Origin: Candidatus Parvarchaeota archaeon
GTDB taxonomy: Archaea; Nanobdellota; Nanobdellia; JAFCGN01
DNA: 53,166 nt
Assembly: GCA_017608045.1 (NCBI GenBank)
Contig: JAFCGN010000007.1
Span: 1 to 53,166 of the forward strand
Reading direction: 5' to 3'
Part shown: positions 47,786 through 51,830 of the stretch, piece by piece
Layout of the letters: every line of letters begins with the position of its first letter
Numbering within the stretch: the first letter of the stretch is position 1
Position numbers and translations under genes: made by a program
Notes under the pieces: generated by a model
Databases searched by the model: none
What the model saw: the letters and a program-made list of their open reading frames with translations, nothing else
What the model was told of the DNA's origin: nothing

Positions 47786-48853
47786 ATGGACAAGAGGACA
47801 AAAAAAGACAAAATTCTTCAGGATATTTCTTCTGCACTTAAGAAAAAACCCATGACTATAAATGAACTTGCAGAAACAATAGATCTTAATTGGACAACTG
47901 TAAGAGACAACTTGAAGATTTTGGAGAATTTAGGTCTTGTAAATTTCGAACATGAAAAAAGTAAAAAAATTTACTTTGTAAAGGAAGACCTTACTATTAA
48001 AGTAAAGAGAAGTAACACTTTTTTTGGATTACCTATATCTTCTGAACAAGAAAAAATTTTCAATACACTATTTAGTAAAACAAGAGAATTATGGGTTAAA
48101 GTAACTGGAAAAGAACCTGGAAAAACAAAGGTTTATAAAACAGCAGTTGAAGCAATCAAAGAATTAGGTTTAGAAGTACCTTATGGTTGGTATAAATTTG
48201 GAGAAGTATGTTTAATGACTTATGAACCAGAAAAAGAATACGTGCCTGAAATACAAATACCAAAAATTGATAGTGTAATAGAAAGAATTATAGAAAAATT
48301 TAAGACAATGAACACACTCGAGTTAGAAATTTATTGTTATTCAAAAAATTCTCTATATAAATCAAGTTTAGAAATAAGAAAAAAGTTAATAGAATGTGGG
48401 GGAAATATTAAAAATCTGGAAGGGTTACAAAAAGATCTTTATACTTTTCTCTTTTCAATGAAAAAAGGGGTATATGATGAAGAAACATTTGACTTAGTAA
48501 GAGATTTTGTGATTATTACTTCATTTTTAGTAAATAGCAAAAAAAATGCTCTGCCTCAAATAATACTTGCTTTTGAAACGATTTGGTCATTAATTGCAAT
48601 TTTTAATTTTATGTATTCTCTTGAAAAAGAATTTGGTTACAGTAGAAAAATGTTAGAAGAATATATGAAAGATAAAATACTTTCAGCTAAAGAAGAATGT
48701 AATTGTATATTATCGGATTTAAGTGAATTAATGAAAGAGAGTTTGTCTTCGAATGAAAAAGGATTTTCTCAAGGAAAATTAAAAGGTAAACTAAAAGAAA
48801 TTGATAGAGAAGAAGTGTTTGAAGAGTTTGCAGAAAAAATTTCTAAACATTAA
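47786..48853 (+). CDS. Winged-helix N-terminal protein with long helical C-terminus
   Basis: KKPMTINELAETIDLNWTTVRDNLKILENLGLVNFEHEKSKKIYFVKE. Confidence 0.7.
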   Translation: MDKRTKKDKILQDISSALKKKPMTINELAETIDLNWTTVRDNLKILENLGLVNFEHEKSKKIYFVKEDLTIKVKRSNTFFGLPISSEQEKIFNTLFSKTRELWVKVTGKEPGKTKVYKTAVEAIKELGLEVPYGWYKFGEVCLMTYEPEKEYVPEIQIPKIDSVIERIIEKFKTMNTLELEIYCYSKNSLYKSSLEIRKKLIECGGNIKNLEGLQKDLYTFLFSMKKGVYDEETFDLVRDFVIITSFLVNSKKNALPQIILAFETIWSLIAIFNFMYSLEKEFGYSRKMLEEYMKDKILSAKEECNCILSDLSELMKESLSSNEKGFSQGKLKGKLKEIDREEVFEEFAEKISKH

Positions 48854-49283
48854 GGAAATCAGATGGAAATAAGATTTCAATTTTATCTATGAAAATACTA
48901 AAGTGTTCTATGTTCCCTGTAACTAAAAAATCTGTCTTGGCTTTTATGGCTAAGACTGCATGTAGGGCATCTGCATAATGCGTTTCATTAGTGCTTCTGC
49001 ATATTTTTCTAGTTTTTTCTATGTCTTCTTTACTGGTCTTTACTTCTTCTGTTTTTAGGTTAAATTCATGAATAATTTTCTCAAAATTTTCCGAAGAAAT
49101 ACCTATTTTTTTACATTCTTCTTTTAACCAATCTGAAACAATAAGGATGAATTGTTCATCTCTAATTTTTTTGAATGTTTCAAATGCAAAGTATGAATGA
49201 GGGATAATTGTGTTCTCCCCTGATAAATAGTTCTTGAAGACATTAGTATCTAAATAAACTCTTTTTTGTTTGTTATTACCCAT
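48843..49283 (-). CDS. PIN-domain ribonuclease-like protein
   Basis: RVYLDTNVFKNYLSG, ETHYADALHAVLAIKAKTDFLVTGNIEHF (conserved acidic positions of the PIN fold). Confidence 0.8.
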   Translation of the reverse strand: MGNNKQKRVYLDTNVFKNYLSGENTIIPHSYFAFETFKKIRDEQFILIVSDWLKEECKKIGISSENFEKIIHEFNLKTEEVKTSKEDIEKTRKICRSTNETHYADALHAVLAIKAKTDFLVTGNIEHFSIFIDKIEILFPSDFLNV

Positions 49284-49490
49284 AAAATCAATACTTGAAC
49301 ATATTTTGTAAATAAATAATTTATTTTTAGTTTATGATAGTAATCTTAAGGAAAACAAGATGTATGCTTTATAATCATAAAAACTTTATAATTAAATAAT
49401 CCTAACAATACTTAGTAATTCATAAACATTAACAAGATTTATGAGTAATGAAGATGATAAGTATTAATTAATTATTTCTCTTACACTTTG

Positions 49491-49528
49491 CTCTCGCCTG
49501 TTCTTTCAGAGAAAAGAACGGGCGGGAG
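49491..49528. other. 16-bp GC-rich hairpin, 6-nt loop
   Basis: CTCTCGCCTGTTCTTT-CAGAGA-AAAGAACGGGCGGGAG; 14 Watson-Crick plus 2 G.U pairs, no bulges. Confidence 0.85.
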
Positions 49529-49594
49529 TTTAGTATTTAGTAGCGGAAAAAAGTAATATTTATAAGTATGTGTAACTATTTGCTTATTTGAGGA

Positions 49595-49753
49595 ATGAAA
49601 ATGACATCAAAGAACATAACACTCAAAGTAAATGCTAAGCTTTATAATAAATTTAGAAAACTCTGTAAGGAGGAAGGATGGATAGTATCTCGTCAATTTG
49701 AGAAATGTATGGAAGCAGAGTTAAAAAAGAGAGGACAAGAAAATGGAAGTTGA
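49595..49753 (+). CDS. 52-aa ribbon-helix-helix-like protein
   Basis: MKMTSKNITLKVNAKLYNKFRKLCKEEGWIVSRQFEKCMEAELKKRGQENGS; overlaps the next CDS by 11 nt. Below the size cutoff of the supplied ORF track. Confidence 0.7.
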   Translation: MKMTSKNITLKVNAKLYNKFRKLCKEEGWIVSRQFEKCMEAELKKRGQENGS

Positions 49754-51830
49754 AACATTATTACGCGATATAGAAAACAAGGATTTAGTTCTGCCTGAAT
49801 TTCAGAGAGAGTTTGTATGGAAAGAACAGGATGTAAAGACATTTATTCAATCTTTGTATAAAGGATACCCTACAGGTTCTTTACTTATTTGGAAAACTCT
49901 TAACCCACCAAAAATAAGGGGAGAAAAAAAAGATGCTGAGGGGGTTTATACTCGTGTTCTTCTTGACGGACAGCAAAGATTAACTACACTTTACTTATTC
50001 ATTAAAGGTAGATCCCCTCCATATTACCCCGATATGAAGAAGCGATTTAATCTTTATTTTAATGTAGAAACTGAAGAGTTCAGATATTTTCAAAAAACTT
50101 TAATGGAAGGTAAGAAAGAATGGATTTCTCTTTTAGATTTTTTTAAAGCTGGAAGTGCTGCTACATTTATAAATAACAGCGAAGACAAGGAGTTTTATTT
50201 TAAACATTTAGATCAATTAACAAAACTTGAAAATATAAAGACATATGATTATTTTGTTGATGAAGAAAAGCTTGGAAAATTAACTGAAATAAAAGAAGTT
50301 GTAAGAATATTTAACTTAGTTAATAAACAAGGACGAACATTATTAGAGGAAGATTTGGCGTTGGCTCATGTTTGTGTTTTTTGGCCTGAAATTAAAGAGA
50401 TTTTTAGAAAAGAATTGGAATTATTAGAAAAAAGCGGTTTTGAATTTGATTTTAATTTTTTGATTTTATGTTTAAACTGTGTTGCAACAGGTCATGCTAA
50501 ATTTGATAGTTTTTATAATGTTTCTGAAGATAAAATAAGAGATGCATGGACAAAAGTAAAGAGAAGTTTGGAATATTTGATTAATATACTTCACGACAAA
50601 GCTTATGTTAGTTCGACTAAATCTTATGAATTAAAATCTAATGCTTTGTTAGTACCGATGATTGTTTACTTATCCAATAACAGGTTTGAATTTAAAGATG
50701 AGAAAACATTAAACAAATTCTTATATTGGTTTTATAATGCAATGATGTGGGGAAGATATACAAGAAGAGGAAAATCATCGCCATTAGAACAAGATGTTGT
50801 AACAATCACAAGAGAAAATTCACCAGAATCATTAATCCATAATTTTAAAAGAGAAGTTCCATATTTTGAAGTCAAGCCTGAAAATATTAAAGGTGCTCCT
50901 GTTACAAGCCCGTTTTTTAATATGATGTTTATTATAGCTAAATCAGAAGGTGCAGTGGATTGGTTTAATGGTCAAGTTTTACATTCAAAATTGATTGGAA
51001 GTTCTTATAGGTTGCACAAACATCATATCTTTCCAAGGAGTATATTAAAGAAATATGGTTATTATAATGAAATTGAAAAGAAAAAAATGGTCAATGAAAT
51101 TGCTAATAGAGCATTCCTAACAGAGAGAGCTAATATTCAAATAAGAAATTCAAAACCTGAGAAGTATTTACCTAAAGTATTGAAAAAATACCCTAGTGCA
51201 TTAAAGTCTCAATTTGTTTCTGAGAAAGAAGATCTTTGGAAAATTGAAAATTTTGAAGACTTTTTAAGAGATAGAAGAAAAAGGATTGCAGAACAAATTA
51301 ACAAATTTATGAAAAATTTAGTGGATAGTGATTTGCCTAAACTAGATATTCGTGAATTAATTAAACAGGAAGAAAGCTACAATCTTGAATTTAAATCAAC
51401 ATTCTCTTGGAATCTAAAAGAAGAAAAAGTAGATAAAGATATAAAATATTCAGTTTTGAAAACAATTGTTGGGTTTATGAATGCAAACGGTGGGACTCTT
51501 CTTATTGGGGTTAGCGATGACAAAAAGATAATTGGCTTGGAATATGACTATAAAGCAAATTGGAAAGGAAACAAAGACGGTTTCTTGCTAGATTTTAGAA
51601 ATTTTATTGAAAAACAGATAGGTATAACAAATTATAATCGTTATATCACCCTAAATTTTATGGAAATTAATAATAAAGAGATTTTAATGGTTCAAGTTGA
51701 AAAAAGTTTAGATCCAATCTTTGTCAAAGCGAACGGTAAGAAAATTATGTATGTTAGATTAGATAACAAAACTGAACCTATAGATGACCCAGAAGAAATA
51801 AATAAGTATATTGAAGATAATTGGAAATGA
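49743..51830 (+). CDS. DUF262 (GmrS-like) + HNH-type + AlbA_2/Schlafen-type fusion protein
   Basis: N-terminal LPEFQREFVWKEQDVKTFIQSLYKGYPTGSLLIWK and VLLDGQQRLTTLY (DUF262); central HKHHIFPRSILKK (HNH-like); C-terminal ESYNLEFKSTFSWNL...LKTIVGFMNANGGTLLIGVSDDKKIIGLE (AlbA_2). Confidence 0.9.
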   Translation: MEVETLLRDIENKDLVLPEFQREFVWKEQDVKTFIQSLYKGYPTGSLLIWKTLNPPKIRGEKKDAEGVYTRVLLDGQQRLTTLYLFIKGRSPPYYPDMKKRFNLYFNVETEEFRYFQKTLMEGKKEWISLLDFFKAGSAATFINNSEDKEFYFKHLDQLTKLENIKTYDYFVDEEKLGKLTEIKEVVRIFNLVNKQGRTLLEEDLALAHVCVFWPEIKEIFRKELELLEKSGFEFDFNFLILCLNCVATGHAKFDSFYNVSEDKIRDAWTKVKRSLEYLINILHDKAYVSSTKSYELKSNALLVPMIVYLSNNRFEFKDEKTLNKFLYWFYNAMMWGRYTRRGKSSPLEQDVVTITRENSPESLIHNFKREVPYFEVKPENIKGAPVTSPFFNMMFIIAKSEGAVDWFNGQVLHSKLIGSSYRLHKHHIFPRSILKKYGYYNEIEKKKMVNEIANRAFLTERANIQIRNSKPEKYLPKVLKKYPSALKSQFVSEKEDLWKIENFEDFLRDRRKRIAEQINKFMKNLVDSDLPKLDIRELIKQEESYNLEFKSTFSWNLKEEKVDKDIKYSVLKTIVGFMNANGGTLLIGVSDDKKIIGLEYDYKANWKGNKDGFLLDFRNFIEKQIGITNYNRYITLNFMEINNKEILMVQVEKSLDPIFVKANGKKIMYVRLDNKTEPIDDPEEINKYIEDNWK

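What the first reader, a model, noticed from the sequence alone, without database searches (positions are those of the whole stretch)
49595..51830. Candidate defence operon: RHH protein translationally coupled to a DUF262-HNH-AlbA_2 fusion
The sequence shows a 52-aa RHH-like ORF (missing from the ORF track) overlapping by 11 nt a 695-aa protein. That protein carries a DUF262 DGQQR motif, an HxHHIFPRS HNH-like motif and a C-terminal AlbA_2/Schlafen-type module. DUF262 plus HNH/DUF1524 is the core of GmrSD-type type IV restriction enzymes and SspE-like effectors. A C-terminal AlbA_2 domain adds a putative nucleic-acid-binding or nuclease module, and an overlapping RHH gene suggests toxin-antitoxin-like or autoregulatory control. 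The surroundings are accessory (PIN gene, pseudogene, foreign-composition stretch). Function as anti-phage or modification-dependent restriction is inference.
Basis: partly seen in the sequence, partly recalled or inferred. Interest (0 to 1): 0.75.

Follow-up and report, generated by a model that had tools for sequence, protein, structure and literature searches.

The report
RHH control cassette on restriction-type gene
A tiny archaeal DNA-binding protein, carried with its own promoter as a ready-made switch, overlaps a gene that looks like a three-part virus-DNA-cutting enzyme, and the same switch stands before dozens of unrelated restriction and defence genes in related small archaea.

Summary
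The two ORFs, their 11-nt overlap and the three domains are real. The 695-aa protein is a GmrSD-type (DUF262 + HNH) core fused to a C-terminal Schlafen/AlbA_2 domain, with all catalytic motifs intact. Five other full-length members of this architecture were found (two archaea of the same phylum, two haloarchaea, Sinorhizobium); three lie in or beside type I R-M or DUF1156-methylase/helicase loci; none follows the RHH.

The larger result is the RHH. It belongs to a short family (mostly 44-54 aa) found in front of unrelated genes: 46 of 59 copies overlap the next gene by 1-29 nt, 8 abut it, and 45 of these 54 neighbours are DNA methyltransferases, restriction subunits or nucleases, or BREX. Twenty related longer RHHs used as control have 0, sitting mostly beside RelE-like toxins. 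A promoter with an operator-like repeat is conserved with the RHH and covaries with its beta-strand residues; homology to the window largely stops at the client's start codon. The operator occurs once in the genome.

Best reading: a portable autoregulatory promoter-RHH cassette controlling a GmrSD-Schlafen restriction enzyme. Toxin-antitoxin is not supported; autoregulation is. All function is inferred.

The parts
49490..49529 (+). Strong hairpin just upstream of the promoter (17-bp stem); role unknown, possibly a terminator or a boundary of the cassette
   Evidence: RNA fold -30 kcal/mol, z -6.15 against shuffles
49557..49588 (+). Archaeal-type TATA box overlapped by operator-like tandem repeat TATTTATAAG TATGTGTAAC TATTTGCTTATT between TATA box and start codon
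   Evidence: Conserved upstream of RHH homologs with the same strand residues (TLKV: 14 of 18, other RHHs 0 of 43, Fisher p 1.4e-10); one match in the whole 775-kb genome with up to 3 mismatches
49595..49753 (+). Short ribbon-helix-helix-like control protein (52 aa; likely start 49601, 50 aa)
   Evidence: weak RepB-RCR_reg/RepA hits
49743..51830 (+). GmrSD-type restriction enzyme core fused to a Schlafen/AlbA_2 domain, 695 aa; start codon lies inside the RHH gene
49749..50372 (+). GmrSD_N / DUF262 domain, aa 3-210; FQRE 20-23, DGQQR 75-79
   Evidence: Pfam E 3.4e-29; motifs invariant in homologs
51018..51248 (+). GmrSD_C / DUF1524 HNH nuclease domain, aa 426-502; HH 427-428, N455, N464
   Evidence: Pfam E 5.9e-4; residues invariant against viral-contig GmrSD homologs; model of aa 200-530 is confident and matches BrxU
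51372..51782 (+). Schlafen/AlbA_2 domain, aa 544-680; triad E544, E549, D592
   Evidence: Pfam E 2.6e-18; profile hits Schlafen structures at 4e-11; E544/E549 invariant 9/9, D592 8/9

Best explanation
A two-gene restriction operon under a portable control cassette. The cassette (promoter, operator repeats, short RHH gene) ends at the start codon of its client. The RHH dimer is proposed to bind the repeats between TATA box and start codon and to repress its own transcript, so the operon is open when it enters a naive cell and is throttled once RHH builds up; the 11-nt overlap couples translation of the client to the RHH at a low level. The client is a GmrSD-type enzyme: the DUF262 domain binds NTP and senses foreign, probably base-modified DNA, the HNH domain cuts it, and the fused Schlafen domain, whose catalytic triad is intact, is proposed to cleave tRNA or other RNA as a second or back-up effector. 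Shown here: genes, overlap, domains, intact motifs, cassette conservation, operator-RHH covariation, client bias. Inferred: repression, modified-DNA sensing, DNA and RNA cleavage, antiviral role.
For: Domains and motifs; modelled core matches BrxU, a solved type IV enzyme, E 5.8e-8, probability 1.00, and BrxU by sequence, 1.2e-7. The AlbA_2 profile matches Schlafen structures, 4e-11; E544/E549/D592 align with SLFN13 E205/E210/D248, whose mutation reduces or abolishes tRNA cleavage (PMC5862951). Same-architecture homologs sit in a type I R-M operon, near hsdM and hsdR, beside DUF262, DUF1156 and helicase genes. RHH homologs in front of 59 genes: 46 overlap, 8 abut, 45 of these 54 are R-M/nuclease/BREX; control RHHs 0 of 20. 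Nucleotide homology to the window covers promoter plus RHH in front of unrelated genes and ends at 49745, the last base of the client ATG, in seven matches. Operator covaries with RHH strand residues, p 1.4e-10 and 1.3e-8.
Against: No experiment. Fold of the RHH is not confidently modelled (single sequence, strand not recovered), and profile hits to RHH families are below cut-off. Full-length model is weak outside aa 200-530 (mean pLDDT 63.7), so the DUF262 and AlbA_2 folds rest on sequence profiles. Nothing shows which DNA or RNA is the substrate. Some RHH clients are not defence genes (two surface proteins, several of unknown family), so client type alone does not prove defence. The operator motifs were defined by eye on the same sequences on which they were then counted, which inflates the p-values.
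Confidence: 0.7

Rival explanations
1. Type II toxin-antitoxin pair: the RHH protein binds and neutralises a toxic GmrSD-AlbA_2 protein.
For: Overlapping small RHH gene upstream of a nuclease; closest other RHHs are RelB-like antitoxins beside RelE-like toxins.
Against: The short family (mostly 44-54 aa) lacks the roughly 20-30 aa C-terminal extension of those antitoxins and precedes 41 unrelated client clusters, too many for specific neutralisation; the other five fusions have no RHH.
Confidence: 0.1
2. The AlbA_2 domain is only a nucleic-acid-binding or specificity module, with the HNH domain the sole effector.
For: Nostoc and Paracoccus relatives carry a different C-terminal segment in this position, and many GmrSDs have none; C-terminal add-ons in GmrSD are variable (PMC4619093).
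Against: The Schlafen triad is conserved: E544 and E549 in 9/9, D592 in 8/9, more than binding alone would need.
Confidence: 0.35
3. The RHH is an activator or a global regulator and not a local autorepressor.
For: C proteins of R-M systems can also activate; the R-M review contrasts them with RHH regulators that act strictly as repressors (PMC3874152).
Against: The repeats overlap the TATA box and the likely start site, where binding should block, and the operator has one match in the whole genome.
Confidence: 0.15
4. Chance linkage: the RHH is a generic small gene that happens to stand before defence genes because these are frequent in accessory regions.
For: The region is accessory, and a few clients are not defence genes.
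Against: 45 of 54 adjacent clients against 0 of 20 for related RHHs, conserved overlap, and homology that stops at the client ATG.
Confidence: 0.03

Closest known systems
GmrSD / BrxU (type IV restriction, DUF262 + DUF1524)
   Same: Single-chain DUF262-HNH, DGQQR and HNH motifs intact; fold search returns BrxU first
   Different: About 15% identical to BrxU in the structural alignment; carries a C-terminal AlbA_2 domain, which the 2015 family survey (PMC4619093) does not list among extra domains (DUF4268, DUF4357, DNA_binding_1); substrate unknown
PADLOC candidate family HEC-05
   Same: Best PADLOC match, E 7.5e-39 over aa 71-524
   Different: Model ends before the AlbA_2 domain; no adjoining gene set of a larger system was identified in the window
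Schlafen RNases (SLFN11/12/13/14) and prokaryotic Schlafen effectors
   Same: AlbA_2 domain with E-E-D triad; Schlafen RNases are reported as back-up effectors in BREX loci (PMC12839542, which cites a preprint on bacterial Schlafens)
   Different: One AlbA_2 lobe here against the pseudo-dimer of mammalian SLFN; fused to a restriction enzyme and not to a helicase or kinase module
C (controller) proteins of type II R-M systems
   Same: Small DNA-binding protein gene upstream of, and coupled to, R-M genes, with operator-like repeats at its own promoter
   Different: C proteins use a helix-turn-helix; this one looks RHH; clients span type I, IIG, II, III, BREX and GmrSD-like genes. The review read here names RHH regulators (omega, PaaR) for TA systems only
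RelB-like RHH antitoxins of RelBE-type pairs
   Same: Related RHH sequence; small gene overlapping or abutting the next
   Different: 65-80 aa with a longer C-terminal tail and a RelE-like partner

Membership tests
GmrSD (type IV restriction) | DUF262/GmrSD_N domain with DGQQR | tested here: met
   Pfam 3.4e-29; D75-R79 invariant
GmrSD (type IV restriction) | DUF1524/GmrSD_C HNH domain | tested here: met
   5.9e-4, slightly under cut-off; homologous cores pass; H427/H428/N455/N464 invariant; BrxU fold match
GmrSD (type IV restriction) | NTP-stimulated cleavage of modified DNA | not testable with these tools
   needs biochemistry
Schlafen/AlbA_2 nuclease | AlbA_2 domain by profile | tested here: met
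   Pfam 2.6e-18; Schlafen structures 4e-11
Schlafen/AlbA_2 nuclease | three-carboxylate catalytic triad | tested here: met
   E544, E549, D592
Schlafen/AlbA_2 nuclease | RNA cleavage | not testable with these tools
   needs biochemistry
Ribbon-helix-helix (MetJ/Arc) regulator | strand-helix-helix fold, dimeric | tested here: inconclusive
   Two helices modelled, strand not; Arc at E 0.022; RepB/RepA profiles under cut-off
R-M controller (C) protein | small gene coupled to R-M genes with its own operator-like promoter repeats | tested here: met
   binding itself not tested
R-M controller (C) protein | helix-turn-helix (XRE-type) fold | tested here: not met
   No HTH family hit in Pfam or NCBIfam; RHH-like pattern. 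Works like a C protein; not filed as one
Type II toxin-antitoxin | antitoxin with toxin-binding region and a dedicated toxin partner | tested here: not met
   No C-terminal extension; 41 unrelated partner clusters
HEC-05 (PADLOC) | family profile | tested here: met
   E 7.5e-39; this library gives no score cut-off

The most novel reading that the evidence does not exclude
Small-genome archaea carry a mobile promoter-RHH cassette that installs one self-limiting expression circuit on unrelated restriction and defence genes; copies with the same strand residues and operator in one genome (three in G184) cross-regulate each other and can exclude incoming systems, as C-protein incompatibility groups do. 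In the window the circuit holds a dual effector that answers foreign DNA by DNA cutting and, if that fails, by Schlafen RNA cleavage.
Probability: 0.35. Interest if true: 0.8.

Novelty: new variant of a known kind. Interest (0 to 1): 0.66.

Why it matters
How restriction systems in archaea are kept from killing their host on arrival is little studied; the archaeal R-M survey and the R-M regulation review searched here mention no RHH controller of R-M. A short, recognisable RHH gene with a readable operator would give a handle on control of immunity in uncultured archaea, and a search key for new defence genes: genes of unknown family behind this cassette become defence candidates. The GmrSD-Schlafen fusion joins a DNA-targeting and an RNA-targeting effector in one chain and can be tested directly.

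Tried and rejected
Toxin-antitoxin reading: rejected on RHH length and partner diversity. RHH as conserved partner of the fusion: rejected, none of five other full-length fusions has it. RHH in plasmids, phages and viral contigs: no match in plasmids, three marginal Vibrio phage hits at E 0.07 (two of them annotated arc-type RHH), no confirmed viral contig. Genome-contig scan returned only one core-only relative. Single-sequence model of the RHH did not settle the fold. The conserved CACTGGACA element upstream of some cassettes was not explained.

Full report
OBSERVATION. Both ORFs are in the sequence as described: 49595-49753 (52 aa) and 49743-51830 (695 aa), + strand, 11-nt overlap. Homologs of the small protein begin at its third residue, so the start is probably 49601, with GAGG at 49590 as ribosome-binding site; the large gene has GAGG at 49731 inside the RHH gene (sequence). 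The small ORF is a gene and not chance: differences to 12 homologs fall 175/103/251 at codon positions 1/2/3.

THE LARGE PROTEIN. Pfam gives GmrSD_N (3.4e-29), SLFN_AlbA_2 (2.6e-18) and a just sub-threshold GmrSD_C (5.9e-4); PADLOC gives HEC-05 (7.5e-39). FQRE, DGQQR, HH427-428, N455 and N464 are invariant against viral-contig GmrSD homologs. The model is confident at about aa 200-530 only; the fold search puts BrxU first (E 5.8e-8, probability 1.00), and only its two chains fall below 0.001. The C-terminal profile matches Schlafen structures at 4e-11; by those alignments E544, E549 and D592 correspond to SLFN13 E205, E210 and D248, where mutation diminished tRNA cleavage and E205A/E210A were inactive (PMC5862951). 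E544 and E549 are invariant in 9 of 9 AlbA_2 sequences and D592 is kept in 8 of 9.

RELATIVES OF THE FUSION. Full-length homologs of the same architecture: Haloquadratum walsbyi PL100 (36%), halophilic archaeon DL31 (35%), Sinorhizobium meliloti pSymA (33%), and two genomes of the window's own phylum sample, G390 and a divergent one in G290. They are sporadic: of 377 phylum genomes sampled, only G000, G390 and G290 gave a full-length match. On the tree of the GmrSD core five fusions form one supported clade and G290 falls elsewhere, two changes at least, with a long-branch warning. In the same position the Nostoc and Paracoccus relatives have a different C-terminal segment and the Planctomycetes one has none, so the C-terminus is modular. 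Contexts read from ORFs and annotation: inside a type I R-M operon in G390 (hsdM, ORF6N-type genes, the fusion, hsdS, hsdR, my reading of translations, not profile-tested), before hsdM and hsdR in pSymA, beside DUF262, DUF1156 and helicase genes in DL31. None has the RHH upstream.

THE RHH FAMILY. A search with the 52-aa protein found free-standing homologs in 18 of 85 genomes; most of the first nine loci looked at stood before methyltransferase or nuclease genes. A profile found the broader family in 128 of 377 genomes. I fetched the 60 strongest hits besides the window; 59 had a readable next gene. 46 overlap it by 1-29 nt, 8 lie within 0-3 nt, 5 are further away; 45 of the 54 adjacent genes are DNA methyltransferases, restriction subunits, restriction-type nucleases or BrxB. 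The 59 form 41 clusters at 35% identity, about 28 of them of that kind (my tally). Classes were assigned from cluster representatives and from the Pfam tally, so single loci could be misplaced. Control: 20 weaker, longer RHHs from the same search, 13 of which stand before an 85-92-aa protein that I read as RelE-like, none before an R-M gene. PADLOC also finds methyltransferase models in many of the 58 clients scanned.

THE CASSETTE. blastn of 49300-49900 against the 60 loci: the main matches run from about 49512-49555 to 49713-49745, at 66-80% identity, in front of unrelated genes; seven end exactly at 49745, the last base of the client's ATG, and only three run further (to 49746, 49752, 49761). 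Between TATA box and start codon the TLKV-strand RHHs share TATTTATAARTATGTGNNANTATTT (14 of 18 by the counted pattern, 0 of 43 others), while TLSL/TLSI RHHs share ACATTTG...CATTTG-type repeats (11 of 13, 2 of 48 others). Both motifs were chosen after seeing these sequences, so the p-values (1.4e-10, 1.3e-8) are optimistic, and related loci are not independent. In the window's genome the operator occurs once, at 49557, with up to 3 mismatches.

MECHANISM. Shown in the sequence: overlap, operator-like repeats over the promoter, a single such site in the genome, intact catalytic motifs, client bias. Inferred: the RHH represses its own operon and thereby times and limits a dangerous enzyme, as C proteins do for R-M systems; DUF262 senses modified foreign DNA with NTP and HNH cuts it (from GmrSD/BrxU/SspE, PMC10952713); the Schlafen domain cleaves RNA as second effector (from SLFN13, and from the proposal of Schlafen RNases as back-up effectors in BREX, PMC12839542).

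NOVELTY. The GmrSD survey lists DUF4268, DUF4357 and DNA_binding_1 as extra domains, not AlbA_2 (PMC4619093). The R-M regulation review places RHH regulators in TA systems only (PMC3874152), and the archaeal R-M survey and the archaeal immunity paper mention no RHH controller. Only open-access papers were searched, so prior description elsewhere is possible. I rate it a new variant of a known kind: restriction control by a small coupled regulator is known; this fold and this portable form are not described in what I read. The organism is an archaeon with a 0.77-Mb assembly, probably DPANN (inference from size and gene content, not tested).

Noticed in passing
49490-49529: 17-bp hairpin (z -6.15) just upstream of the cassette promoter; a similar 39-nt stretch occurs near the RHH of L166 (87%), and similar GTTCTTT/AAAGAAC stretches appear upstream of some other cassettes.
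   Followed up: partly
upstream of the RHH in L132, L134, L137, L147, L151, L157 and others: CACTGGACA-type element upstream of the TATA box in 12 of 61 cassettes (well below 1 expected in shuffles); absent from the window. Possible recombination or regulator site.
   Followed up: no
48843-49283 and 47786-48853: PIN-domain gene (PIN_3, 9e-7) convergent with, and overlapping by 11 nt, a gene with an ArsR-type winged helix; both next to the cassette.
   Followed up: no
L115, L126, L134 (all genome G184): One genome carries three cassettes with the same TLKV strand and operator before a type IIG-like enzyme, a type III Mod and a 131-aa protein without Pfam family: possible cross-regulation.
   Followed up: no
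L134:731-1123, L166:1561-3372, L169:2-589: Genes of no Pfam family directly behind the cassette; candidate new defence genes.
   Followed up: no
L016, L017, L019, L020: Nostoc/Paracoccus GmrSD relatives carry an unassigned C-terminal segment with a DLAWP...PIALLID-like pattern in place of AlbA_2, which could be a nuclease domain.
   Followed up: no
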